In this document: positions 1,905 through 13,270 of the stretch, in pieces
Layout of the letters: the number at the start of each line of letters is the position of its first letter
How positions within the stretch are numbered: position 1 is the stretch's first letter
From: Limnothrix sp. FACHB-406
GTDB taxonomy: Bacteria; Cyanobacteriota; Cyanobacteriia; CACIAM-69d
Assembly (NCBI RefSeq): GCF_014698235.1
Contig: NZ_JACJSP010000003.1
Span: forward strand, 248,001 to 312,000
Direction: 5' to 3'
DNA length: 64,000 nt
Translations under genes and position numbers: made by a program
Notes under the pieces: generated by a model
Seen by the model: only the letters and a program-made list of their open reading frames with translations
Databases searched by the model: none
What the model was told of the DNA's origin: nothing

Positions 1905-4298
1905 ATGAATTTTTACGAACGATCACTACGAGCTACAGCGGTAGGCTGCGAGAAGCTAGCCGAGTCCTTGAAAAAAAGTAATTACACCAAAAGCTCAATT
2001 GGAGATTTTATTCAGTACCGTAAAAGCTCTAGCGAGAAAGGTGATAGAGAAATTAAACAGGTTGGTGTTAAACGCCAGACGATCTCCAAAATGTTTAATG
2101 GACATAAGGTTGATCGCAGAATTTTTCTTGAAGTATGTAAGCTATTGGGGCTGAATTGGCAGGAGATTACCGAGTTAGCAACTAGCGAGCCGCCTGCTCC
2201 GAGCGTGGCATCGGATGCGATCGATGTGGCGTGGGTGCGATCTCAGGTGGAGGCGGACTTGCGGCGGCGGTGCGGCACGATGCGGGTGCTGGATATGGAA
2301 CAGCCGATCGCCCTGGGCACGATTTACACCCAAGTGAATGTGCTGGAAAAGCTGACTGCAAATCAGCGCCTCAGCTCATCGGAATTGCTAGGAAATTTGG
2401 ATGAAATTGAGGAGTTTGATCGATTTTGTCTAGGTAAAGTGCGCCAAGAGAAGATCTCGGGCTTAGATGCTGTTACCCGACATAAAGCGCTGATGGTGTT
2501 GGGTTGGCCGGGTGCGGGTAAAACTACGTTTTTGAAGTATTTGACAATTGCCTGCCTGGATGGAAAATTCTTAGGCAATCTTGTGCCTATCTTTGTCACG
2601 CTCAAAGAGTGGACAGAATTTCCAGGCGAGCCAAATTTACTGAATTTTGTATCTCAGCAGTGGTCAGATTGTGGGATTACCGATTCTGAGTCTGTTTTGC
2701 ATCAATGCCTGAAATATGGTCAAGCTCTGGTCTTGTTGGATGGGCTAGATGAGGTGTTGGCAGCTCATACGGATCGGACGATTCGGGAAATGCGGAACTG
2801 GGTTGATCGTTTTCCCAAAAATCATATTCTTGCCACTTGTCGAATTGCTGCCAAGGAATATACCTTTGAGCGTTTTACTGAAGTAGAGGTGGCAGATTTT
2901 TCGGAAGAACAGATTCAAGAATTTGTTACTAATTGGTTTACTTGTCATCAGGACTTGCCTAAGATCGAACGTTTTCTAGAACGACTAGCAAATGAAGAGC
3001 CAATTTTGGAATTAGCCAGCAATCCGCTGCTGTTGACCTTACTTTGCTTAGTATTTGGTGAGAGTGGTGATTTTCCAGTCAACCGAGCCAAGCTTTATGA
3101 AGAAGGTGTGGATCTGCTGCTGAAGAAGTGGGATGGTAAGCGAAATATTCAGCGAGATCAGGTCTACAAGAATCTATCAATTGGTCGAAAGGAAGATTTG
3201 CTCTCGCAGTTGGCGCTGGCAACCTTTCAAGAGGGGTCTTATTTCTTTGATCAGCGAGTGGCAGAAGAGCAAATTATGGCTTATATCCATAATTTGCCGG
3301 ATGCTAAAGATGATCCAGAAGCCTTGCGGCTAGATAGCGAAGCTATTTTGCGCTCAATTGTGGCTCAACATGGCTTACTGACAGAACGAGCGCGCGGAGT
3401 TTATTCCTTTTCGCATTTGACTTTTCATGAATACTTTGCAGCCAGAGAAATTGTTGATCGTCAAAATTGGCAACTGCTAACTCAACATTTGCTTGATAAA
3501 GCTTGGCGGGAAGTCACCTTACTCGTAGCGGGCAGCGTTCGGCAAGGCGATCAATTAATTCTGACGCTGAAACAAGCTACGGACAATCTGTTGGCTGATG
3601 ATCCACAGTTGCAGGCTGTTTTAGCCTGGTCTACTGAAAAAGCAGCATCGGTAGAAGCGCCTTACAAACCACAAGCAGTAATTGCGTTCTACTCTACCCG
3701 TGCCCTCACTCGTGGTATTGCTTCTGATCTCGCTATAGTCAAGACTTTTGACCTTACTCTTTTTCGTGGGCTTAATTTCGCTATTGATTTTGCTTTCGAT
3801 CAGGCTTTTGCTCTCGCTCTCAATTATGCTCTCGCTCTCAGTCAGGATTCCTCTCCCGATTATGGTCTATCTTGCGAGCAAGTTTTTAATCTCAATCTTA
3901 ATCGCGCTCACGCTCACGCTCGCAATCTGAATAACCAAGACCTAGTAGCCCAACTAACTGCTCTAAAAGGCCAATTGCAGCCTATACGAAGCTCACCTTG
4001 GAAGCAGAGAAAAAAATGGTGGAAAAATGAAGGACAAGACTGGATCAGATCTTTACGAGCTGTGATGATTGAGCATCGCAATATTGGTCATGACTGGCAA
4101 TTTTCTGATCGACAAAAAGAGCTTTTGTGGAAGTATCATGATGCCAATTTGCGATTGGCAGAATGTTTGAATACTGATTGTTATTTGTCCCGAGAAGTGC
4201 GGCAAGACATCGAAGCCACAATGCTGCGCCCGATCGCCCAAATTGAGGCCTACTACGCCGCCAAAGGCAAACCCTATCCACCCGTGCCCAACCCCTAA
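1905..4298 (+). CDS. NACHT-family STAND NTPase with N-terminal HTH
   Basis: This 797-residue protein has an N-terminal helix-turn-helix at about residues 52-92 (VKRQTISKMFNGHKVDRRIF), a NACHT NTPase with Walker A GWPGAGKTT (200-208) and Walker B LVLLDGLDEV (275-284), and then a long helical region. Near the C terminus (about 745-785) is the segment LAECLNTDCYLSREVRQDIE, which recurs at the end of many cyanobacterial NACHT proteins. A low-complexity Ala/Leu/Phe stretch lies at about 615-650. NACHT proteins are signal-sensing switch ATPases, and several bacterial ones protect against phage. Base composition is clearly more AT-rich than the flanking genes, suggesting acquisition by transfer. The stop overlaps the convergent xisI end by 4 bases. 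No separate effector domain (TIR, nuclease) is visible, so the output is unknown. Confidence 0.85.
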   Translation: MNFYERSLRATAVGCEKLAESLKKSNYTKSSIGDFIQYRKSSSEKGDREIKQVGVKRQTISKMFNGHKVDRRIFLEVCKLLGLNWQEITELATSEPPAPSVASDAIDVAWVRSQVEADLRRRCGTMRVLDMEQPIALGTIYTQVNVLEKLTANQRLSSSELLGNLDEIEEFDRFCLGKVRQEKISGLDAVTRHKALMVLGWPGAGKTTFLKYLTIACLDGKFLGNLVPIFVTLKEWTEFPGEPNLLNFVSQQWSDCGITDSESVLHQCLKYGQALVLLDGLDEVLAAHTDRTIREMRNWVDRFPKNHILATCRIAAKEYTFERFTEVEVADFSEEQIQEFVTNWFTCHQDLPKIERFLERLANEEPILELASNPLLLTLLCLVFGESGDFPVNRAKLYEEGVDLLLKKWDGKRNIQRDQVYKNLSIGRKEDLLSQLALATFQEGSYFFDQRVAEEQIMAYIHNLPDAKDDPEALRLDSEAILRSIVAQHGLLTERARGVYSFSHLTFHEYFAAREIVDRQNWQLLTQHLLDKAWREVTLLVAGSVRQGDQLILTLKQATDNLLADDPQLQAVLAWSTEKAASVEAPYKPQAVIAFYSTRALTRGIASDLAIVKTFDLTLFRGLNFAIDFAFDQAFALALNYALALSQDSSPDYGLSCEQVFNLNLNRAHAHARNLNNQDLVAQLTALKGQLQPIRSSPWKQRKKWWKNEGQDWIRSLRAVMIEHRNIGHDWQFSDRQKELLWKYHDANLRLAECLNTDCYLSREVRQDIEATMLRPIAQIEAYYAAKGKPYPPVPNP

Positions 4299-4615
4299 CC
4301 CGCGATCGCAGACAGAGGCGATCGGGGACTCGCGGGCACAAAATCTTCCTCCCGCAACCCCAACTCAATCAGGTCATCGATCAACGTATCCGTGCCGTTC
4401 CACTCCACCCGAATTTGCTCCCCGATCGCCCGTAAATGCACCACCACACTGTGGATGCGATCGTGCCCCGACCACCCCACATTCATCAACAAATAATTCC
4501 CCGTTTCCCCATCACAAACCGCAATCAGCTCCACCCCCCGATCCGTTCGCGCCAACCCCACATACCGCTGAAAAACCGTCTGAATCGCCTGCCGAAAATC
4601 TACATCCCCAGCCAT
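4295..4615 (-). CDS. xisI: XisI-family protein
   Basis: This 106-residue protein has the XisI pattern: a helical N terminus (FRQAIQTVFQRYVGLARTD), a central beta region around NYLLMNVGWSGHDRIHSVVV, then IRVEWNGTDTLIDDLIELG and a closing REEDFV segment. XisI was named as a factor controlling excision of the Nostoc/Anabaena fdxN element, but most genomic copies, including this one, are not next to such an element. It starts inside the end of xisH (16-base overlap, 4600-4615), implying translational coupling. The final residues (ASPRSPLSAIAG) deviate from the usual GF..P...EFAVA-like ending. The pair behaves like a two-gene accessory module, and its biochemical role is unknown. Confidence 0.85.
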   Translation of the reverse strand: MAGDVDFRQAIQTVFQRYVGLARTDRGVELIAVCDGETGNYLLMNVGWSGHDRIHSVVVHLRAIGEQIRVEWNGTDTLIDDLIELGLREEDFVPASPRSPLSAIAG

Positions 4616-5021: not shown

Positions 5022-5139
5022 TTAAAAATCTTCCTCCCGTAACCCCAACTCAATCAGGTCATCGATCAACGTATCCGTCCCGTTCCACTCCACCCGAATT
5101 TTGCGGGTGAAACAGACATAGGCATCCTCCGCAAATGCT
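5022..5139 (-). pseudogene. xisI remnant (C-terminal fragment)
   Basis: On the minus strand this stretch encodes RKIRVEWNGTDTLIDDLIEL followed by GLREEDF and a stop, the same peptide as in the intact xisI at 4295-4615. The DNA is about 95% identical between 5025-5102 and 4341-4413. Upstream the frame continues only as AEDAYVCFT and reaches a stop without a plausible start codon. It lies six bases ahead of xisH, so an earlier xisI-xisH arrangement or tandem duplication has been partly deleted. Confidence 0.8.
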
Positions 5140-5212: not shown

Positions 5213-5572
5213 ATGCCACCCTCTGGTCTCTCGGTGACAGAACTCTATCAACGCTTGCAAACCAGCCCCCAAGCGATCGCGCAGTTCTGTGAAAAATGGG
5301 CGATCGTAGAACTAGCGCTGTTTGGGTCTGTATTGCGCTCAGACTTTCGACCGACCGGAGCTGATCCAAGCGATATTGATTTGCTCTATCAAAGCGCCCC
5401 GGAAGCGCACTATGGTTTCAAGTTTTTTGATTTGCAATCAGAACTAGAAAAATTACTGCAACGTAAAGTTGACTTGATTAGTAAAAAGGGACTTGAAATG
5501 AGCCGCAATCCCCTACGTCGCCAAGAGATTCTCAACGCCGCTCAAGTAATTTATAAAGTCTCTAGAGTATAA
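5213..5572 (+). CDS. mntA: MntA-type nucleotidyltransferase antitoxin
   Basis: This 119-residue minimal nucleotidyltransferase has the family signature ALFGSVLRSDF (G38, S39), followed after a spacer by SDIDLLYQ with the metal-binding pair D54 and D56. In type VII toxin-antitoxin systems MntA inactivates HepT by adding AMP units to a tyrosine next to the HEPN active site. The downstream gene is exactly such a HepT, beginning two bases after this stop. The arrangement antitoxin-then-toxin, the lengths and the motifs agree with an intact, functional pair. Confidence 0.9.
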   Translation: MPPSGLSVTELYQRLQTSPQAIAQFCEKWAIVELALFGSVLRSDFRPTGADPSDIDLLYQSAPEAHYGFKFFDLQSELEKLLQRKVDLISKKGLEMSRNPLRRQEILNAAQVIYKVSRV

Positions 5573-5574
5573 AA

Positions 5575-5907
5575 ATGAGCAGAGATCAGCAAGCTATTCT
5601 CGATATCATTGATTCGATTGAACTCATTCAAAACTATACTCGATCGAACAATTGGAGCCAAGCCAGAACGATAGAATATGATGCAGTTATTCGGCGCTTG
5701 ACGATTATTGGTGAAGCGACCAAGCGCCTATCAATGGAGTTTCGCACTAACCATCCGGAAATACCGTGGAAAGCAATGGCTGGGCTACGGGATTTTGTCG
5801 TCCATGAGTATGATGTTATCAATTTGGAAATCATCCAAGATGTGGTGAATTTTGAACTTCCCCAACTGTTACCACTCCTCAACAGTTTGCTAGATGGAGA
5901 ATTCTAA
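5575..5907 (+). CDS. hepT: HepT-type HEPN ribonuclease toxin
   Basis: This 110-residue all-helical HEPN protein carries the RX4HXY motif as RDFVVHEY (R72, H77, Y79). In characterised HepT proteins Arg and His form the RNase centre, and the tyrosine is the residue modified by MntA. The upstream helix contains RRLTIIGEATKRLS, another typical HepT segment. The gene is translationally coupled to mntA. Its 3' end abuts a decayed gene fragment (5907-6030), so it sits at the edge of a rearranged area. The intact motif suggests an active toxin held in check by MntA. Confidence 0.9.
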   Translation: MSRDQQAILDIIDSIELIQNYTRSNNWSQARTIEYDAVIRRLTIIGEATKRLSMEFRTNHPEIPWKAMAGLRDFVVHEYDVINLEIIQDVVNFELPQLLPLLNSLLDGEF

Positions 5908-6030
5908 TTAACCTGAAACAAGACCTTGGGCTGCAACTGATTCAAACCGAAAGCCGCATCGAAATCACCACCGAAGAGCAAGGGGCGATCGTTCGCGGCC
6001 GGATCGATGTGTTGGTGCTGCCCCCACCCC
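5907..6030 (+). pseudogene. Fragment of a decayed cyanobacterial conserved gene
   Basis: The plus strand encodes INLKQDLGLQLIQTESRIEI and then TTEEQGAIVRGRIDVLVLP before running into the REP-like palindrome at 6034. The first part matches the fragment at 11344-11667 (NLKQDFGLQL), with about 28 of 31 bases identical. The second part resembles a downstream region of the same cyanobacterial family, often annotated as 'restriction endonuclease subunit R-like' hypothetical. An internal deletion therefore joined an N-terminal piece to a middle piece. There is no start codon of its own. Confidence 0.6.
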
Positions 6031-6033
6031 CCT

Positions 6034-6062
6034 ATCGTTCCTACGCTTCGCGTGGGAACGAT
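6034..6062. repeat. REP-like palindrome, single unit
   Basis: The sequence ATCGTTCCTACGCTTCGCGTGGGAACGAT is a near-perfect palindrome around a short loop. The same unit (CGTTCCCACGC...GCGTGGGAACG) forms both ends of the three larger composite repeats at 6666, 8758 and 10311. This single copy lies 9 bases beyond the 3' end of the REP-associated transposase gene. Confidence 0.85.
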
Positions 6063-6070
6063 GTCTGTTT

Positions 6071-6601
6071 CTACCAGGGATCGATCGCCACCAGTCCCGT
6101 TTTCCCCAGATAGTTTCGCGCACTGGAATAGCGCCAATCGGCGGGATCGTCAACATAGCCGCGCTTGACGGGATTGTTGTGGATGTAGTCCAGTTTTTCG
6201 CGCATCATGTCATCGCTCAAGATGAGTTCAGCGTGTGAACCTTCCTGCCAGAGTTGATACTCCCGATCGCCCTTATGGGCCGCTTTGGCGAAGGCAAGTT
6301 GTCCCAGCAAAGTTTGGGCGTTATGCCGTTGGAGTAAATCGATCGTTTGTCGAGCGGTGAAGGATTTGAACCGGGCGATACATCGATCGAGTTGGGGAGC
6401 CTGGGCGATGAGATGGAGGTGATTTTCGAGGATGACGTAGCCGTAGAGTTGAAAGCGATCGTTTTGGCGGAGGTATTGCCAACTATCGAAGACGATCGCC
6501 ACGGCTTCGGGTCGCGTGAAGATGGGGAGCCATTGGACGATCGTGCAAGTGAGGAAGTGGGGGCGATCGGGTTCAGTGATGACGTAGCGGCTACGACCCA
6601 T
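6071..6601 (-). CDS. REP-associated tyrosine transposase (RAYT, Y1/IS200-like fold)
   Basis: This 176-residue protein has the single-domain Y1 HUH architecture: HLH at residues 61-63 (ENHLHLIAQ) as the metal-binding HUH motif, and the family block DYIHNNPVKRGYV with the candidate catalytic tyrosine Y139, followed by WRYSSARNYLG. RAYTs are domesticated single-copy relatives of IS200/IS605 transposases that process REP/BIME palindromes as single-stranded DNA. REP-like palindromes flank the gene on both sides (6034-6062 and 6666-6784) and recur at 8.8 and 10.3 kb. This is the expected arrangement for a RAYT with its substrates. It appears full length and intact. Confidence 0.92.
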   Translation of the reverse strand: MGRSRYVITEPDRPHFLTCTIVQWLPIFTRPEAVAIVFDSWQYLRQNDRFQLYGYVILENHLHLIAQAPQLDRCIARFKSFTARQTIDLLQRHNAQTLLGQLAFAKAAHKGDREYQLWQEGSHAELILSDDMMREKLDYIHNNPVKRGYVDDPADWRYSSARNYLGKTGLVAIDPW

Positions 6602-6665
6602 AACCTATATGGTTTCTACTTTTCCCTACTTTACCGTCGATCGCCCCTCTCCATCCCCACCCCCC

Positions 6666-6784
6666 TATCGTTCCCACGCGGAGCGTGGGAATGCTGTGTG
6701 GACGCTCTGCGTCCCGGTGGTGCTGGTGTGCTACGCGACGCGGAGCGTCGGGGCTGCGTTCCCACGCTCTGCGTGGTAACGATA
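6666..6784. repeat. BIME-like composite palindromic repeat, copy A
   Basis: About 119 bp bounded by ATCGTTCCCACGC on the left and GCGTGGTAACGAT on the right. Inside are a second palindromic pair (GGACGCTCTGCGTCCC and GACGCGGAGCGTCGGGG). The whole unit is an imperfect palindrome and is closely similar to 8758-8877 and 10311-10448. It lies between the RAYT start and the terminator of the FGE-like gene. Confidence 0.85.
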
Positions 6785-6785
6785 G

Positions 6786-6815
6786 AAAAAAAATAAAAAA
6801 AGGCGCTAACGCGCC
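6786..6815 (-). terminator. Intrinsic terminator of the DUF4160-DUF2442-FGE operon
   Basis: Read on the minus strand, GGCGC-GTTA-GCGCC (6815-6802) is followed by a long T-rich run (6801-6786, T7ATTTTTTTT). It lies about 35 bases after the stop of the FGE-like gene. The hairpin plus uridine tract is a textbook Rho-independent terminator. Confidence 0.85.
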
Positions 6816-6847
6816 GGAAGAGGGAAAGAGGGAAAAAGAGTAGAGCG

Positions 6848-8203
6848 CTATATAGTTCTGGGGAGAAGAAGCCGAAAACCAATGTAGTAGTTCTGGCGAT
6901 CGCGCGTGTCGTTGCTCCGAAACGCCGAGCGGCAATGCTTCGGGTAGTCGCCCCACGAACCACCACGCAGCAGTTTGGCTGAATTTCCTGAATTTAGTAC
7001 AGCTTTCAAGTATTGCTCATGATTTCCAGAATAAGAATGATTGTCATTATCTATCCAGGCACGACCGTCTGTAGGTGCGCCGTTATAGCTTCCATGCCAG
7101 TCATCCATGCACCACTCCCAAACGTTCCCGTGCATGTGGTGCAAGCCCCAGGCATTGAGCGCTTTTAGGCTGTTTACGGGGACGGTTGTTTGCCGATCTT
7201 TTCCTTTCTGTCCGTTGCCGTAGGTATAGTTGCCGTTGTAGTTGGCGACTTCTGTGGAAAGGGTTGCGCCAAAGTGAAAGGGTGTTTGTGTTCCGGCGCG
7301 GCAGGCATATTCCCATTCGGCTTCGCTGGGCAGTCGGTAGGCTTTGCCGGTGGCTTGGCTGAGGCGAAGACAAAATTCAATGCACTGCTTCCAACTCACT
7401 CGCTCAACGGGGTGATCAGGATTTTTGAAGTTTGATGGGTCGGGATCAAGTTGAATGCTAATTTGATCGAGGTTTGCCACGGCTCGCCACTGGGCTTGGG
7501 TCACGGTGGTGCGGCTCAGGAAGTATTCGGGTAGCGTGACTTGGTGAATGGGGCTTTCAGCGCTGCCTAGTTCCTGTTCGTTGTCCGGTGATCCCATCAT
7601 GAAGTCTCCGGCGGGGATGCGGACAAATTCGAGGTTCAAGCCGCAGGCGGTTTCGATGAAGCCTTGGTTGCTGCCCGATTCTTCTTTCGCGATGCTGCCG
7701 TATGAGTCTAGGGTGATGACCGTGTAGGTGTAGGTTTGGCTGTACCAGCGGTCTCGTTCTGCTTGCTCTTCTTGCTCTTTGGCGGCTTGGGCTGCCCGAC
7801 GATCGGCTTCTTCCTGTGCCTGCCGCTCGGCTTCTCGACGCTTGGCGGCTGCTTCCTGGTCGTTGAGCCGCTTCAGGAGAGCAAAAAATTCCCGATCTAA
7901 GGCGATCGCGCTGGCTTCATCACCCAAACGCCGTAACAAAACCTGCAATCGTTCAATCAGCTTGCCATCTGCACCAACCAGCACTTGACCGAAGGCGGCG
8001 ATCGCCTCGGACATTTCGGCAGTTTCCGACGGTGGATTTCCCCCGCGCCGTTGGGTGATCTCGCGGATCGATCGCTTCAGGTCTGACCTTGTGCGATCGG
8101 GGTCGAGATGGGCGAACTGTTCGGCGATCGTGAGGATGCCATCGAGCAAATAATCCACCTTGGTGGCGGGTTTGGATGGATCAAGAATGGGTAGCTTATT
8201 CAT
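6848..8203 (-). CDS. FGE-sulfatase-domain protein, candidate DGR target
   Basis: This 451-residue protein has a helical N terminus (1-105), a charged coiled coil (about 110-155, with AAAKRREAERQAQEEADRRA), and a formylglycine-generating-enzyme-like, C-type-lectin-fold domain (about 185-450). Family markers are FMMGSPDNE, YRLPSEAEWEYACRAG, MHGNVWEWCMDDW and LLRGGSW. True FGE enzymes need two cysteines after RGGSF; here the first position is Asp (SWGDYPKHC) and only the second Cys remains, so catalysis is unlikely. The last 40 residues (RGGSW...NYYIGFRL) have the pattern of variable regions of diversity-generating retroelements, whose cyanobacterial targets often carry this fold. It follows the DUF2442 gene by 15 bases, forming an operon with it and DUF4160. 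No reverse transcriptase lies in the window. A ligand-binding role is inferred. Confidence 0.85.
   Translation of the reverse strand: MNKLPILDPSKPATKVDYLLDGILTIAEQFAHLDPDRTRSDLKRSIREITQRRGGNPPSETAEMSEAIAAFGQVLVGADGKLIERLQVLLRRLGDEASAIALDREFFALLKRLNDQEAAAKRREAERQAQEEADRRAAQAAKEQEEQAERDRWYSQTYTYTVITLDSYGSIAKEESGSNQGFIETACGLNLEFVRIPAGDFMMGSPDNEQELGSAESPIHQVTLPEYFLSRTTVTQAQWRAVANLDQISIQLDPDPSNFKNPDHPVERVSWKQCIEFCLRLSQATGKAYRLPSEAEWEYACRAGTQTPFHFGATLSTEVANYNGNYTYGNGQKGKDRQTTVPVNSLKALNAWGLHHMHGNVWEWCMDDWHGSYNGAPTDGRAWIDNDNHSYSGNHEQYLKAVLNSGNSAKLLRGGSWGDYPKHCRSAFRSNDTRDRQNYYIGFRLLLPRTI
6862..6972 (-). other. Candidate DGR variable region (VR)
   Basis: This covers the codons for LLRGGSW through IGFR of the FGE-like protein. 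Between constant blocks, variable-looking positions carry codons one or two changes from AAY (GGC, GAC, TAC; CAT; TTT; AGC, AAC, GAC; TAC, TAC), as expected if adenines of a template repeat are mutagenised. The constant frame RGGSW-x3-P-x2-CRSA-x-R...IGFR matches DGR target proteins. No template repeat was found within this window, so the assignment is provisional. Confidence 0.45.
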
Positions 8204-8218
8204 GGTTTTTTGTGGGTA

Positions 8219-8515
8219 TTATCGTTGATCGAGCCAGGCTTGAAGCGATCGTTGACTTTCGCCAGAAGGTTGTCCCAACAAGAGGTTTTTGACGCTGATA
8301 TCTTCGTCGAGATCTGGCCAATAAATGCCGGTTTGGTTCGGAGCAATTTCCCAGCGATCGCGCTCGGCGGGTGAACCGTGGAAGAGGCGGGGATACCAGG
8401 CGATCGGCACAGAAATAATTCGACCATCGGTCAGGGTAACGGTCAGTAATTCATCGGTGAGCGTCAAGCCAAGAATTGGCGGGACTTGGATTATTTCAGT
8501 CGCGAAAGAACTCAT
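8219..8515 (-). CDS. DUF2442 protein
   Basis: This 98-residue protein has the DUF2442 layout: a beta strand pair (LTDELLTVTLTDGRIISVP), then the signature IAWYPRL, then ERDRWEIAPNQTGIYWPDLD and ISVKNLL. DUF2442 genes are typically found next to DUF4160 genes in bacterial genomes, and the pair is suspected to be a toxin-antitoxin-like module. Here DUF4160 is immediately upstream and the two reading frames overlap by 20 bases, indicating translational coupling. The C-terminal tail SGESQRSLQAWLDQR extends slightly beyond the core. Molecular function is not established. Confidence 0.88.
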   Translation of the reverse strand: MSSFATEIIQVPPILGLTLTDELLTVTLTDGRIISVPIAWYPRLFHGSPAERDRWEIAPNQTGIYWPDLDEDISVKNLLLGQPSGESQRSLQAWLDQR

Positions 8516-8732
8516 CCCATTTCTCCATCAAGTCAGGTTGATTGGTTTCGATTAAACGCTGAATACGGTTCAACTCTTTGGCACTGAAGCCTTGGTTGGA
8601 CTGCAATCGGACAGGAACAAGCCAAAATTTTGCCTCATTGTTGCTGGTGCGAACGTGAATATGGGGCGGTTCGTCGTGATCGCCTGCGTAGCAGAAAAAA
8701 CGATAGCCATCAATCCGCAAGAGCGTTGGCAT
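8496..8732 (-). CDS. DUF4160 protein
   Basis: Starting at the ATG at 8732, this 78-residue protein begins MPTLLRIDGYRFFCYAGDHD and continues EPPHIHV, the hallmark of DUF4160 (short proteins with a conserved H-x-H after an acidic/proline segment). An in-frame start at 8768 would run into the palindromic repeat and is less likely. It overlaps the DUF2442 gene by 20 bases. Together they head the operon that ends with the FGE-like gene. A toxin-antitoxin role for the DUF4160/DUF2442 pair is suspected from genomic context in the literature and is not shown by sequence. Confidence 0.85.
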   Translation of the reverse strand: MPTLLRIDGYRFFCYAGDHDEPPHIHVRTSNNEAKFWLVPVRLQSNQGFSAKELNRIQRLIETNQPDLMEKWDEFFRD

Positions 8733-8757
8733 AGTCTTTAGTATGTTGCTGGTCGTT

Positions 8758-8877
8758 ATCGTTCCCACGCTCGGCGTGGGAATGCCGTATGGACGCTCCG
8801 CGTCCCGGTGACAGGAGTAAGAGGGTTACGGGATGCAGAGCGTCGGGGCTGTGTTACCACGCAGAGCGTGGGAACGA
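8758..8877. repeat. BIME-like composite palindromic repeat, copy B
   Basis: It is bounded by ATCGTTCCCACGCTCGGCG on the left and ACGCAGAGCGTGGGAACGAT on the right, with internal GGACGCTCCGCGTCCCGGTG and ATGCAGAGCGTCGGGGC. It closely matches 10311-10448 and 6666-6784. It separates the DUF4160 start from the 3' end of the next minus-strand gene. A partial extra GCGTGGGAAC follows at 8885-8894. Confidence 0.88.
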
Positions 8878-8906
8878 TGGGACGGCGTGGGAACAATGGG
8901 AGGTGT

Positions 8907-10283
8907 TTACAGGGTGTCGAATTGGGCGAGGTTTTCCCAGAAGAGCGATTGCAGTTGTTGAACTAATGACTTTTTGAGCTCGTCATCCTTCACTGAGTCC
9001 AAAATCTCTGGCAGGAGTTGAGGAAGCTGGGGCGGGCGATCATAAAACGAGAGGTAATACAGATCTACTTGCATCATCAGGATGAGATTGCCGATCGTGG
9101 CGAGGAAATCGGCTAATTCTTCAATGTATTTTTCATCATTGACGATGTAGCCATAATCGTGAGTTTCATCAAACATATTCAGCTCACGATCTTCTTCCTC
9201 CCGTTCCAGTGTTTTCAAATTGGCTTCATCAACTGGCCGGCGTTGGGCAATTTCCTCTAAGCTACGGCCGCGATCGATCAACTTCAAACGATCATCCCGC
9301 CATTGCGCCGCATAGCGCTTCGCCGTGGGGTACAGCACATCCTTCCAAGAAATGGAAAACACCTGTTCGTAACTGCTGCCCTCACTGCGGTTGCAGCGAC
9401 CAATGTACAAATCAATATTGTTGCCGTTGAGCTTGCACTCCAGAACGATGACGGGCGCAAAGGGCAGGGCGGTGTGGAGATTGTCGATCGCCGATTTGCC
9501 GCTGAATTGCTTGCTACGCCAACCGTTACCCTGGTAGTTCACCGGATGGGACGAACCCGCACCACACCGATCGCCAAACACCCGGCTGATCGTGTCGGCA
9601 ATCCGATTACTGATGTTGACAAAACCGCGATCGACATTGGCGCGAGGCGACGGTTCGTGTTCCAACGCCAACGGCGAGATCGCCACCAACGGGGGAACCA
9701 CATTTTGGGTTGCATAGTACCGATCATAGGTGTCCCGCAAACTACGCACCGTCACCGTCAGCGGATACACCGCACTCACCTCGCGATCGTCCGCCAGTTC
9801 ACGCTGTCGTATGAAGTGCAGTTCCGCTAACATCAGTTCCTTGGCTTTTTGGAATTCCGCCAGGGCGATGTCGAACTTCATCCGCTTTTCTTGGATGACC
9901 AGATCATGACTCAGGCGCTGAGCAAGGCGGTCATCTTCCCGATCCTGGCGTTCCCGTTCAATCCGGGCGTTAAATTCTATCTGGCGACGCTGTTGCGCTG
10001 CTTGGAAGGCCCGATCAAGATCAGCCCGCGCATCCGCCGCCGCGATCGCCAGACTCTGGAGTCGTTCCTGATGAGCGTGATTTTGCTCTTGCAATCTCAC
10101 GTTCGTCATCAACGTTGCCATGGCGTTTTCGCGCTGCATGTCCGCCGCTTCACGCATTCCCGCTCGCTGTTGATAGCTCGGCGGTGTGAGCCAACTGCTC
10201 GCCCAGCGTCGTGCCTTGTCAAACCAGTTGGTTGATTTTTGCATCTCGCTGCGGGACGAGTCGATCGAAACAAGACTTCCCAT
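8907..10283 (-). CDS. Coiled-coil protein of unknown function
   Basis: The family was not recognised. The 458 residues divide into an N-terminal 45 with two Trp-containing amphipathic stretches (NWFDKARRWASSWL), a long predicted coiled coil at about 46-165 rich in Gln/Arg/Ala/Glu (including RRQIEFNARIERERQDRED), and a mixed alpha/beta region at about 170-340 with a hydrophobic strand APVIVLECKLNGNNIDLYIG. A helical acidic C terminus (about 345-458) follows. No signal peptide or transmembrane segment is seen. The gene lies in a minus-strand array in which every spacer carries one BIME-like repeat. A structural or scaffold role in an accessory system is possible but is inference. Confidence 0.7.
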   Translation of the reverse strand: MGSLVSIDSSRSEMQKSTNWFDKARRWASSWLTPPSYQQRAGMREAADMQRENAMATLMTNVRLQEQNHAHQERLQSLAIAAADARADLDRAFQAAQQRRQIEFNARIERERQDREDDRLAQRLSHDLVIQEKRMKFDIALAEFQKAKELMLAELHFIRQRELADDREVSAVYPLTVTVRSLRDTYDRYYATQNVVPPLVAISPLALEHEPSPRANVDRGFVNISNRIADTISRVFGDRCGAGSSHPVNYQGNGWRSKQFSGKSAIDNLHTALPFAPVIVLECKLNGNNIDLYIGRCNRSEGSSYEQVFSISWKDVLYPTAKRYAAQWRDDRLKLIDRGRSLEEIAQRRPVDEANLKTLEREEEDRELNMFDETHDYGYIVNDEKYIEELADFLATIGNLILMMQVDLYYLSFYDRPPQLPQLLPEILDSVKDDELKKSLVQQLQSLFWENLAQFDTL

Positions 10284-10310
10284 TGGTTTTCGGTTAATTG
10301 AAGGTTGTTG

Positions 10311-10448
10311 ATCGTTCCCACGCTCTGCGTGGGAATGCCGTCTGGACGCTCCGCGTCCCGGTGACAGTGTTTGCAGGGCTAATCAACGGTTACGGGATAC
10401 GCGACGCAGAGCGTCGGGGATGCGTTACCACGCAGAGCGTGGGAACGA
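10311..10448. repeat. BIME-like composite palindromic repeat, copy C
   Basis: About 138 bp from ATCGTTCCCACGCTCTGCGT to the matching inverted end GCAGAGCGTGGGAACGAT, with the same internal palindromes as copies A and B. Its centre holds about 20 more bases than copy B. It lies in the spacer between two minus-strand genes of unknown function, 28 bases upstream of one and 8 bases downstream of the other. Confidence 0.88.
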
Positions 10449-10455
10449 TGAGAAA

Positions 10456-11241
10456 TTAAGCACGGGACAGGTTGAAAATTAATGTCGCGGCTGCCCAGCG
10501 AGCCGAAAGTCCACTCGCAAACAAAGTCGCATCATTGCCGGTTCCCGCATAGGCACAGCCTCCGGGTGTGACATAACCCAAAACATGACCGTTGGCATTC
10601 ACCACCTCTAGATTGCTTTTAAGTGTACCCAGAAGATTTCCCGAACAGTCGTAATACTTATGTCCACTCACCGTGCCAACTTTGCCTCCCCCATAACGAT
10701 GCCAGTAAACATCGCCATCGTCGTAGATCTTGACACTATTATCGTCGCCGGGATGAATTGGGCTAGAACAGGCGGAAGAGTGGGTTTCTAGGCTGTGGGA
10801 AGAAGTGGAATTTGCGAGGAATTCGAGCGATGAAGTAAGGTGTGAATCATGGGTTGATTCGAGCGTGTGGCTGTCATGACCGTGAATCGACGAATCACGG
10901 AAAGGAGAAACGCCACCATGATCGAAGCTTGGATAATCGAGGCTTGGATTCCACGTTGCCGATTCTTGTCCCCAGGCGCGATCATCGTTCAGATTCAGAA
11001 CGTCTGTATGACCCAAGCCATGATTAGCTGTAGTCGGCGGATGCTCTCCGAACCCCAAGGAGGACTCATGAGCTAGTAGATCTGAGGTTAAAAGAGTTGG
11101 GTGTGGATCAGTGATCGGGGAATTGAGATCCAACCCGCTTTGAGTTTGATCATGCTGATGAGTTGGCTCTATAGCAGCATAATCGGCATGACCGTGGGAG
11201 TGGGCGATATGAGCCAAAGCATCATCAAAGGGTGGCTGCAT
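10456..11241 (-). CDS. His/Asp/Ser-rich protein with a short beta-repeat tail
   Basis: The family was not recognised. The start is taken at the ATG at 11241 (MQPPFDDALAHIAHSHGHAD); a GTG at 11253 is the alternative. Residues 1-165 are low-complexity and rich in His, Asp, Ser and Thr (HGHD, THQHDQTQ, SSHSLETHSS), without hydrophobic segments, so probably disordered and possibly metal-binding. The last 90 residues are ordered and contain short strand-turn repeats with Gly/Asn (IYDDGDVYW, GTVSGHKYYDCSGNLLG, VVNANGHVLGYV), ending in a hydrophobic helix (ARWAAATLIFNLS). The 3' end is 8 bases from BIME-like copy C. The ordered tail recalls small beta-flower-like domains; this is a guess. Confidence 0.6.
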   Translation of the reverse strand: MQPPFDDALAHIAHSHGHADYAAIEPTHQHDQTQSGLDLNSPITDPHPTLLTSDLLAHESSLGFGEHPPTTANHGLGHTDVLNLNDDRAWGQESATWNPSLDYPSFDHGGVSPFRDSSIHGHDSHTLESTHDSHLTSSLEFLANSTSSHSLETHSSACSSPIHPGDDNSVKIYDDGDVYWHRYGGGKVGTVSGHKYYDCSGNLLGTLKSNLEVVNANGHVLGYVTPGGCAYAGTGNDATLFASGLSARWAAATLIFNLSRA

Positions 11242-11343
11242 AGCAACGATCACTCAAGCTTTTCTCTCAAGGTAGCTCAAGCTTCCGCGAATATCACACA
11301 GTCGATGATACAAACCAAACCTGATCGATTAACAGCAAGCATC

Positions 11344-11667
11344 ATGATCCAGATTATTGCTGCCCAAGATGTCACCCTTCGGAACCTGAAACAAGACTTT
11401 GGGTTGCAACTGACCGATGATGCCGACTTTTTTCCCGAGTGGCGATCGCCCCAAGCGAGCCTCAGCGCCCTCGAACAACAACTGCTCGATCGCGTCAAAC
11501 AGAACTTTCAAACCCTGCTCGAAGACCCACCCCTGCTCGAAGACGGCGTGAAAATGGTTGTGCTTGCGCCCCTGCGAGGTTTGGGGTCGGGCTATTGCGG
11601 GCGCTGGACGATCACTTCGCGGATCCGTTGCTTACGATCGGGGTCGATCGCCACCAATCGCACATAA
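11344..11667 (+). pseudogene. Truncated copy of a cyanobacterial conserved gene
   Basis: From the ATG at 11344 the frame encodes MIQIIAAQDVTLRNLKQDFG, then LQLTDDADFFPEW, LLDRVKQNFQTLLED and PPLLEDGVKMVVLAPL, the N-terminal 80 residues of a family common in cyanobacteria and often annotated as restriction-endonuclease-related hypothetical proteins. After VVLAPL (about 11575) similarity stops, and the frame continues only as antisense of the Rubisco activase 3' end to a stop at 11667. The body (normally about 200 residues) is missing. A second fragment of the same family lies at 5907-6030. Confidence 0.7.
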
Positions 11668-13016
11668 CAATCCAGGTTTTCCGCCAGGCAGGTTTCCAAC
11701 TTCCCGATCGCCTCGGTTTCCTGGTGCGGTTCCGCCGTTCCGTAGCATTGCCAGGAATTCGCGTTGTAGTGGCGCTTGTCGGCCACCTCGATTCCCAGCC
11801 GGTAGCCGTTGTTGACGATCGGCACAAGCTGCGATCGAATCGTCGGGCCCAAGGGCTGCACCAACTTCGGCCGCTGGCTGCTGCGATATTCCAACTTCGC
11901 TTCCAAATCGGGATTGCCACTCAAGGGCGGCAACTCCGGTTCTAGCTTGGGCCGGGGCACGCCGCTGGGTTTGGCTTCCGGGGCGATCGGTTGGGTTTGG
12001 GTGTGGGTGGCCACGGCCGGCTCGGCGGCGATCGGCTCCGGTTGGGCAGTGGCGCTGTAGGGGCGCGATCGACCCTGTAGCCCGTTGGTTTCGCCTTGGC
12101 CGTTTTGGCTCACCGTTTCGCTGGCGGCATTGGCCTCGCCGTGGGGATTGTAGGCCGCCACCAAGTGCAGCTCCCGAATTCGATCTTGCTCCTTCACCAG
12201 GGCCGCCCCGATCGTCTTCAGTTGCTCCAGGGTCGGTTGCGGTTCTGCAAACTGGGGCAGCGCTTCCTTGGATTTCAGCAGCCGATTCGACACCTGCGCC
12301 AAGCCCGTGTCTTGGATGAACTGCCGCACCAGGTCGTCATAGACCCGCGATTTCATGGCCCCAAAGAAGTCCACGGATTGGTTGGGGAAGGTTTCCACCA
12401 GTTCGGCCACGGCGCGATCGGCCAAACCCAGACCCTCAAACATGCCGCGCACCACCTCCAGCCGTTCCGCCGCCGTCGGTTCCCAATAGAACTTGTCCAT
12501 CCGCCCGTCGCGGATCAGGGGCGCGTAGAGCGTGCCAAAGTCATTGCCCGTGACGATGATCGGAATCCGGCGCACCGGCTCGCTGTCGTAGCTGCCGGGC
12601 AACTGCACGTTGGTGGGGTTGTCGGCAATGTTCATCAGGGTGGCGTTCACCAATTGGGTGTTCACCGTGTATTGGGTCAGGCGATCGAACCGGCCCGCCC
12701 CCGCATCAATATCGTTGATCAGCAGCACGCACATCCGCCCGCGCACCTTCACCATGTCCGAGGCTTCCCGGTAGCGCAACCGCAGCAACCGCGCCGGGTC
12801 GCCCGCGTCGGGGCTTTCCAATTCGCCGCCGGAAATATGCACCGCGTCGATGCCCATTTGCTCAAAGACTAGGTTGCACTGGAAGGTTTTGCCCTCGCCT
12901 TTTTTGCCATGAATGCCCAAAATCAGCGGCACGGGCACACGGGGCAAGTTCAAGAAGTTCTTGACCACATGGACGGCGACTTTCTCGGTGAAGCGGGGCG
13001 AAACGAAGTAGGACAT
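11592..13016 (-). CDS. rca: Rubisco activase with C-terminal SSU-like domain
   Basis: This 474-residue AAA+ protein starts at the ATG at 13016 (MSYFVSPRFTEKVAVHVVKN). Walker A is GIHGKKGEGKT and Walker B LLINDID. The AAA core runs to about residue 290 (IPIIVTGNDFGTLYAPLIRD, arginine-rich RDGRMDKFYWEPT). A Pro/Ala/Glu-rich linker of about 100 residues leads to a C-terminal domain (about 385-470: VPIVNNGYRLGIEVADKRHY, CYVRLVAIDPDRKQRIREVI). This resembles the small-subunit-like (SSUL) repeats of CcmM. In beta-cyanobacteria such activases remove inhibitory sugar phosphates from Rubisco, and the SSUL tail recruits them into carboxysomes. rbcL/rbcS are not adjacent. The 3' end overlaps the tail of a decayed plus-strand gene. 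Confidence 0.95.
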   Translation of the reverse strand: MSYFVSPRFTEKVAVHVVKNFLNLPRVPVPLILGIHGKKGEGKTFQCNLVFEQMGIDAVHISGGELESPDAGDPARLLRLRYREASDMVKVRGRMCVLLINDIDAGAGRFDRLTQYTVNTQLVNATLMNIADNPTNVQLPGSYDSEPVRRIPIIVTGNDFGTLYAPLIRDGRMDKFYWEPTAAERLEVVRGMFEGLGLADRAVAELVETFPNQSVDFFGAMKSRVYDDLVRQFIQDTGLAQVSNRLLKSKEALPQFAEPQPTLEQLKTIGAALVKEQDRIRELHLVAAYNPHGEANAASETVSQNGQGETNGLQGRSRPYSATAQPEPIAAEPAVATHTQTQPIAPEAKPSGVPRPKLEPELPPLSGNPDLEAKLEYRSSQRPKLVQPLGPTIRSQLVPIVNNGYRLGIEVADKRHYNANSWQCYGTAEPHQETEAIGKLETCLAENLDCYVRLVAIDPDRKQRIREVIVQRPQ

Positions 13017-13270
13017 GGTGCGCAACGGAGACAACGGGAACGGCGCAACCCAAGCGCCAGGGCAATTATCGCCTATCCCGTACCCCTCCCCGATCGAACC
13101 CTGATTAGCAATTGTTTTGGGTGCGATCGGGATTGCGATCGGGATGCTGTTGCCGGAACTAACCCACAGATCCCTTGCATCAATCTCCTTGGGAACTCCT
13201 TACGAACTCCTTACGAACAAAGAATCCTGACCGGTCAAGAATAGGAACTAGGAACAAAGAAGTAGACAGT

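What the first reader, a model, noticed from the sequence alone, without database searches (positions are those of the whole stretch)
6848..11241. Minus-strand accessory array of unknown proteins, each separated by a BIME-like repeat
The coiled-coil protein (8907-10283), the His/Asp/Ser-rich protein (10456-11241) and the DUF4160-DUF2442-FGE operon all point the same way. Two of the three have no recognised family. A long helical scaffold, a metal-ligand-rich disordered protein with a small beta tail and a possibly diversified binder could form one undescribed system.
Basis: inference. Interest (0 to 1): 0.52.

Follow-up and report, generated by a model that had tools for sequence, protein, structure and literature searches.

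The report
Split sensor protein and its partner
Three neighbouring cyanobacterial genes that looked unrelated are the pieces of one two-gene cassette: a binding protein that other cyanobacteria keep in one piece, and in some genomes mutate on purpose with a retroelement, appears here cut in two by a repeat and a toxin-antitoxin pair, still beside its usual histidine- and aspartate-rich partner gene.

Summary
The array is real, and three of its proteins belong together. (1) The 458-aa protein is a module without a Pfam name, normally the N-terminal half of larger proteins; 18 of 45 relatives inspected also carry an FGE domain. A profile of module plus tail maps collinearly onto the window: positions 2-269 on the 458-aa protein, 290-366 on the start of the FGE protein. 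The two genes are one ancestral protein, split by a BIME and a DhiTA-like DUF4160-DUF2442 pair. (2) The 262/265-aa protein has an Asp/His-rich disordered leader and a beta-flower-like tail; its relatives lie upstream of module genes. Partners with such leaders, some with other tails, occur at 14 of 46 module loci, against 4 of 281 neighbouring genes. (3) Module-FGE proteins are targets of diversity-generating retroelements (DGR) at 4 of 18 loci tested, one of them beside the beta-flower partner. The window's genome has no reverse transcriptase and no template repeat. (4) The repeats belong with an adjacent REP-associated transposase. Best reading: an orphaned, split DGR-type sensor with a candidate effector; sensing and effector action are inferred, and a decaying relic is the main rival.

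The parts
10456..11253 (-). partner gene, 265 aa from GTG (262 aa from ATG at 11241)
   Evidence: relatives lie directly upstream of module genes, same strand
10768..11253 (-). Asp/His-rich disordered leader of the partner (residues 1-162)
   Evidence: first 140 residues 12.1% His, 10.7% Asp; pLDDT mostly under 50
10462..10740 (-). beta-flower-like C-terminal domain of the partner (residues about 172-264)
   Evidence: Bflower_2, E 1.1e-5, below cut-off; nine strands then a helix, block pLDDT 72-95
10311..10449 (.). BIME (pair of REP hairpins) between partner and 458-aa gene
8907..10283 (-). N-terminal piece of the split sensor: 458 aa, long helix plus module
9798..10172 (-). long predicted helix (residues 38-162)
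8946..9767 (-). unnamed module, profile positions 2-269 of 385 (residues 173-446)
8758..8878 (.). BIME in the seam, ending 28 nt past the stop codon of the 458-aa gene; a partial repeat fills 8885-8901
8496..8732 (-). DUF4160, DhiT-like toxin, in the seam
8219..8515 (-). DUF2442, DhiA-like antitoxin, overlapping DUF4160
6848..8203 (-). C-terminal piece of the split sensor: 451 aa, tail plus coiled coil plus FGE domain
7823..8137 (-). tail of the module at the N-terminus of the FGE protein (residues 23-127)
6866..7630 (-). FGE-sulfatase (C-type-lectin-like) domain
6851..6976 (-). region laid out like a DGR variable region (RGGSW...GFR); no template repeat in this genome
6802..6815 (-). hairpin with T-run after the FGE gene; similar arrangement after three of four Planktothrix-type genes
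6665..6785 (.). BIME after the FGE gene
6071..6601 (-). REP-associated tyrosine transposase, likely source of the BIMEs
6032..6062 (.). single REP on the other side of the transposase gene

Best explanation
The locus is a split and orphaned member of an undescribed two-gene cassette of cyanobacteria. Gene 1 (265 aa) has a disordered Asp/His-rich leader and an exchangeable C-terminal domain, here beta-flower-like. Gene 2 is a receptor: long helix, unnamed module, helical tail, then a sensing end, in many relatives an FGE domain of C-type-lectin fold that a DGR can hypermutate. In the window a BIME and a DhiTA-like toxin-antitoxin pair sit exactly between module and tail, so the receptor is made as two chains of 458 and 451 residues. 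The C-terminal chain starts 15 nt behind the antitoxin gene, so it is probably co-transcribed with the pair. The genome has no reverse transcriptase and no template, so the binding surface is frozen. Proposed mechanism (inferred): the FGE end binds an invader or non-self protein; the module, possibly oligomerised through its coiled coil, passes this to the partner held by its leader; the partner's C-terminal domain acts on the cell, a beta-flower perhaps on the membrane, a C39-like peptidase elsewhere by cleavage. Shown: gene order, split point, DGR targeting in relatives, partner association. Inferred: complex formation, function, and that the two halves still work together.
For: Split: the profile of 20 modules (the FGE protein not among them; the 458-aa protein is) matches the 458-aa protein over positions 2-269 and the FGE protein over 290-366 (11.7 bits, E 7.8e-6 for two targets). 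A tail-only profile from 19 relatives gives the FGE N-terminus (residues 1-155) 19.6 bits; 0 of 4420 reported shuffles (5000 made) reach that, best 11.4; reversed -0.3. With that profile the 11 other FGE proteins are under 0 bits and the best of 270 neighbouring proteins has 4.1. One-piece counterparts: 18 of 45 relatives carry module and FGE domain together (16 by motif, of which L050's is in two overlapping frames, plus L053 and L127 by BLAST and, for L053, Pfam); L187 has module-tail-FGE without TPR. Partner: direct search finds the 265-aa protein in 3 of 291 genomes, own included, always upstream of a module gene; all 3 loci of the genome-contig scan have the pair, one being the same genome as L040; profile search adds L050 and L185 (L185 passes the Pfam cut-off, 40.6 against 38). 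Asp/His-rich upstream partner: 15 of 46 loci pass, one judged false (L055), so 14; background 4 of 281; Fisher 4.6e-11 computed on the 15. With His and Asp both at least 7%: 13, and none of the 4 background genes. DGR: L132 has partner, module-FGE, bAvd (PF22296), reverse transcriptase (PF00078) and a template repeat with A at 12 of 16 mismatches; L050 13 of 16 (p 1.1e-7); L115 11 of 15 in the core (p 1.5e-5) with reverse transcriptase; L053 16 of 17 against a remote template in the same genome.
Against: No experiment and no close relative with the same split. The tail match is short and modest in bits. 9 of 18 module-FGE genes have no Asp/His-rich partner. 14 of 18 module-FGE genes show no template repeat in the stretch scanned. 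Loci are not independent: four Planktothrix-type loci and the near-identical L053/L127 pair. The leader is recognised by composition, not alignment. The module's fold is unresolved (model pLDDT 67; best PDB Z 7.2, within the noise stated by the tool). No enzymatic or toxic activity of any partner is known here.
Confidence: 0.6

Rival explanations
1. A decaying relic: insertion broke the receptor gene, the retroelement was lost, and what remains is not functional.
For: No reverse transcriptase, no template; other module-FGE genes also look broken (L042 with a separate FGE fragment, L050 in two overlapping frames); two same-genus genomes lack the module.
Against: Both halves are long intact frames and the FGE domain is complete (profile 4-254 of 255); the partner gene is intact.
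Confidence: 0.25
2. Two separate genes are the original state and relatives fused them.
For: FGE domains occur with many N-terminal parts (TIR by Pfam; caspase-like and kinase-like by eye), so fusion is common.
Against: The split falls inside the module-tail unit that is contiguous in relatives ending in WD40, TPR, GTPase or FGE; foreign genes and a BIME lie in the seam.
Confidence: 0.06
3. Chance neighbours brought together by repeats: the genes share only an array of BIMEs.
For: BIMEs and a REP transposase are really there; the neighbourhood also holds other probable toxin-antitoxin genes.
Against: Same gene order in relatives whose loci lack this palindrome pattern (eight loci); the tail of the module sits on the FGE protein; all direct relatives of the 265-aa protein sit beside module-FGE genes.
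Confidence: 0.04
4. The FGE protein is an enzyme and the His/Asp-rich partner a metal-binding or storage protein it modifies.
For: The leader is 12% His and 11% Asp; the domain is named FGE-sulfatase.
Against: The domain in relatives is hypermutated at its C-terminal loop, which an active site there would hardly tolerate; partner tails vary from beta-flower to peptidase-like to helices.
Confidence: 0.05

Closest known systems
Cyanobacterial DGR variable proteins with C-terminal C-type-lectin/FGE domain (PMC7517822, passages seen)
   Same: C-terminal CLec-type domain joined to a signalling or repeat N-terminus; variable region in its C-terminal part; remote and orphan copies reported
   Different: The module and the Asp/His-rich partner gene were not mentioned in the passages seen; the window's protein is in two pieces and its genome has no reverse transcriptase
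FGS/FGE-centred conflict systems (PMC7159879, PMC8195603, PMC10907252; passages seen)
   Same: Hypermutable FGS/FGE sensor tied to effectors such as peptidase, TIR, caspase, with adaptor domains and DGR components
   Different: No STAND NTPase, vWA/MoxR or EAD domain was found by Pfam in the window's four array genes; the linking part is an unnamed module and the candidate effector carries an Asp/His-rich leader
Beta-flower proteins PF21784-PF21786, Tubby clan (PMC10584680, passages seen)
   Same: Predicted small beta-barrel followed by a C-terminal helix; weak structural match to 1zxu (Z 4.1) and 2fim (Z 2.7)
   Different: The window's domain is below the Pfam cut-off and sits behind a 160-residue Asp/His-rich leader
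DhiTA toxin-antitoxin, DUF4160/DUF2442 (PMC8198452, passages seen)
   Same: Toxin gene first, overlapping antitoxin gene, same two domains
   Different: Far below the DhiT equivalog cut-off (26.9 against 100 bits)
REP/RAYT elements (recalled; NCBIfam NF047646)
   Same: REP-associated tyrosine transposase flanked by palindromic REPs arranged as BIMEs
   Different: The 7 palindrome sites of this genome (up to two mismatches) all lie within 4.5 kb around this gene, one weaker copy elsewhere

Membership tests
DGR target (variable protein) | C-terminal C-type-lectin-fold domain with variable loop | tested here: met
   FGE-sulfatase E 8e-48; loop aligns with variable and template repeats of G042 and G243
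DGR target (variable protein) | template repeat in the genome with adenine-biased mismatches | tested here: not met
   only one copy of the FGE 3' end in the genome; met in relatives L050, L115, L132, L053
DGR target (variable protein) | reverse transcriptase in the genome | tested here: not met
   PF00078: 0 matches in own genome, controls ring
Module family defined here (module plus tail) | matches both parts of the 385-position profile in order | tested here: met
   2-269 on the 458-aa protein, 290-366 on the FGE protein
Beta-flower (Bflower_2, PF21785) | Pfam gathering score | tested here: not met
   25.7 bits against 38; relative L185 reaches 40.6
Beta-flower (Bflower_2, PF21785) | short-strand beta-barrel enclosing a C-terminal helix | tested here: inconclusive
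   nine strands then a helix, block pLDDT 72-95; Tubby-like 1zxu Z 4.1, 83 aligned, rmsd 4.1
DhiTA toxin-antitoxin | DUF4160 followed by overlapping DUF2442 | tested here: met
DhiTA toxin-antitoxin | DhiT equivalog score | tested here: not met
   26.9 against 100 bits
DhiTA toxin-antitoxin | toxicity and neutralisation | not testable with these tools
   needs expression
REP-associated tyrosine transposase | NF047646 above cut-off and flanking REPs | tested here: met
   106.3 against 80 bits; REPs at 6032-6062 and 6665-6785

The most novel reading that the evidence does not exclude
An undescribed class of two-gene immune or kin-recognition cassette: Asp/His-rich leader proteins are a family of effectors with swapped C-terminal domains (beta-flower acting on membranes, C39-like peptidase, short helical tails), docked through the leader onto a new receptor module whose sensing end is hypermutated by a retroelement; in the window it has been turned into a fixed, two-chain receptor whose C-terminal chain is expressed with a toxin-antitoxin pair.
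Probability: 0.35. Interest if true: 0.78.

Novelty: new variant of a known kind. Interest (0 to 1): 0.6.

Why it matters
DGR-diversified FGE receptors in multicellular bacteria have few known outputs. A partner gene that travels with one branch of them, has a recognisable leader and swaps its C-terminal domain is a direct lead to the effector side. The split copy gives a natural two-chain version in which the binding of the halves can be tested.

Tried and rejected
Active DGR in the window's genome: rejected (no PF00078 match; no second copy of the FGE 3' end). Window variable loop as a product of the G042 template: rejected, 35 mismatches of which 13 at template A.

Pfam, NCBIfam and PADLOC on the 458-aa protein: no family at usable significance (PADLOC best E 0.058). 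Profile of the module against PDB sequences: best E 0.019, to a designed protein. Model of the 458-aa protein: pLDDT 67; Foldseek nothing at E 0.001; best VIA-align Z 7.2, to FlgT and TolB, within the tool's noise range. Beta-flower model: Foldseek nothing at E 0.001; VIA-align best Z 4.1.

Rfam and tRNA scans of the window: nothing. Promoter scan: as many as in shuffles. Pfam on the C39-like partners L042 and L054: no peptidase match even at E 10; L184 none at 0.1. So 'C39-like' is a reading by eye of a Cys-Gly and His pattern (recalled, from no call). That L055's upstream gene is an aminopeptidase is likewise by eye.

This window's palindrome pattern in eight relatives' loci: none. Papers: searches showed no description of the module or of the Asp/His-rich partner in listings or in the passages read; supplements and figures were not available.

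Full report
Observation. The ORFs, strands and repeats are as described. The palindrome occurs 10 times in the window against 0 expected. In the whole genome the pattern with up to two mismatches has 7 places, all between 6038 and 10445 of the window, plus one weaker copy on another contig. The reason lies next door: 6071-6601 encodes a REP-associated tyrosine transposase (106.3 bits, cut-off 80).

The 458-aa protein. It has no Pfam, NCBIfam or PADLOC family. A search of 291 genomes of the phylum finds relatives in 29, own included, nearly all as part of proteins of 700-1170 residues. After the matching module these go on into WD40 repeats, TPR, a GTPase domain, CobW, or TPR-coiled coil-FGE. 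A profile of the module in 388 genomes of the class finds 33, own included.

The split. In relatives the module is followed without a break by a helical tail. In the window the 458-aa frame stops where the tail should go on, and the tail is found at the start of the FGE protein: profile positions 2-269 and 290-366 of 385. Controls: 0 of 4420 reported shuffles reach the score (5000 made; the rest were below reporting); 11 other FGE proteins are under 0 bits; 270 neighbouring proteins are at most 4.1 bits. L187 is a one-piece module-tail-FGE protein without TPR, 47% identical to the window's FGE protein over 290 columns. The seam holds a BIME (8758-8878), ending 28 nt after the stop codon with a partial repeat between, then DUF4160 and DUF2442. 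In Dickeya this pair is the toxin-antitoxin system DhiTA, toxin first and overlapping (PMC8198452, passages seen); in the window order and overlap are the same, the DhiT score far below the equivalog cut-off. The FGE start codon lies 15 nt behind DUF2442.

The partner. The 265-aa protein is found in 3 of 291 genomes, own included. In the two others it lies directly upstream of a module-TPR-FGE gene, same strand, with different outer neighbours. A scan of genome contigs gives three Planktothrix-type loci, all with the pair; one is the same genome as L040. The Bflower_2 profile adds G036, again upstream of a module-FGE gene; the other Bflower_2 matches were weak or in other classes and not beside a module gene found here. 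Looking upstream of 46 module loci, 15 have an Asp/His-rich gene by threshold; I discount L055 as a housekeeping gene, leaving 14; 4 of 281 other genes pass (Fisher 4.6e-11 on the 15). The 14 come from about eight genera (handles; Planktothrix types account for four). Their C-terminal domains differ: beta-flower (window, L040, L043, L050, L132, L133, L185), C39-like with a beta-flower-like end (L042, L184; the latter's end by eye), C39-like (L054), helical by eye (L053, L127, L058, L203). L190 has an Asp-rich 523-aa gene that misses the threshold. By type: FGE 9 of 18, WD40 0 of 13 by motif, the other 14 relatives 4, and the window itself (with L053 and L127 moved to FGE on BLAST and Pfam evidence). 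Thus 9 of 18 FGE types have no such partner.

Diversification. Of 18 module-FGE genes tested, 4 have template repeats with adenine bias: L050 (13 of 16), L115 (11 of 15 in the core, reverse transcriptase adjacent), L132 (12 of 16, with bAvd and reverse transcriptase) and L053 (16 of 17, template at another place of the same genome); 14 show none in the stretch scanned. A same-genus genome, G042, has a caspase-like FGE protein (by eye) with reverse transcriptase and template (14 of 15 mismatches at A). The window's own genome has neither and only one FGE gene at E 1e-10. In one search the Planktothrix variable region has further copies in G155 and G253, not followed up.

Structure. The 458-aa model shows one long helix (38-162), then an alpha/beta part and helices, pLDDT 67; no PDB match stands above noise. 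The 265-aa model is disordered to about residue 162, then nine strands and a helix, block pLDDT 72-95, much as described for beta-flowers (PMC10584680, passages seen); 1zxu and 2fim, Tubby-like, appear at Z 4.1 and 2.7, low scores.

Mechanism. Published work proposes that DGR-diversified FGE/FGS proteins are sensors or effectors in conflict systems of multicellular bacteria (PMC7159879, PMC8195603, PMC10907252; passages seen). By analogy I read the module gene as sensor and the partner as candidate effector. That is inference. What is shown is anatomy: order, split point, template repeats in relatives, association. A relic is the strongest rival (0.25).

Novelty. The kind, DGR-type FGE sensors, is known. 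The module, its Asp/His-rich partner and the split form did not appear in the searches and passages listed. Hence a new variant of a known kind.

Noticed in passing
window 1905-4298 (+): A 797-aa NACHT-NCH2 protein (NLR-like) with a weak HTH match and a weak match to PADLOC candidate PDC-S60, a few kb from the locus.
   Followed up: no
window 5213-5907 (+): A nucleotidyltransferase-like ORF (by eye) followed by a HepT-like ORF (PF01934), a probable second toxin-antitoxin pair.
   Followed up: no
window 4340-4416 and 5025-5101: A 77-base direct repeat, 97% identical, in a pair of genes that look like xisI/xisH (by eye, recalled).
   Followed up: no
window 5910-5940 and 11383-11413: A 31-base repeat (94%) just outside either end of the block; both lie in what look like truncated genes.
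   Followed up: partly
window 11592-13034 (-): Rubisco activase with a C-terminal small-subunit-like domain (PF21228, PF00101).
   Followed up: no
L054 1773-3131, 3804-4634, 4653-6923: TIR-FGE gene, then a C39-like Asp/His-leader gene, then a module-TPR gene, all in one direction.
   Followed up: no
L058 3553-7068: Module fused to a GTPase domain (MMR_HSR1/IIGP-like) with an extremely His-rich partner upstream (19% His in the first 140 residues).
   Followed up: no
L042 3893-4312; L050 5547-6392 and 3427-5556: Module-FGE genes that look broken in these assemblies (separate FGE fragment; two overlapping frames).
   Followed up: no
window 6790-6848 and downstream of L043, L131, L132: A pyrimidine-rich tract, a GCGCG-type hairpin and a T-run follow the FGE stop codon in the window and in three of four Planktothrix-type loci; terminator or retrohoming hairpin.
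   Followed up: partly
L120 4022-7679; L122 5425-7552: Tandem FGE genes in two genomes of the same family as the window's; no reverse transcriptase by PF00078 in G133, one in G042.
   Followed up: no
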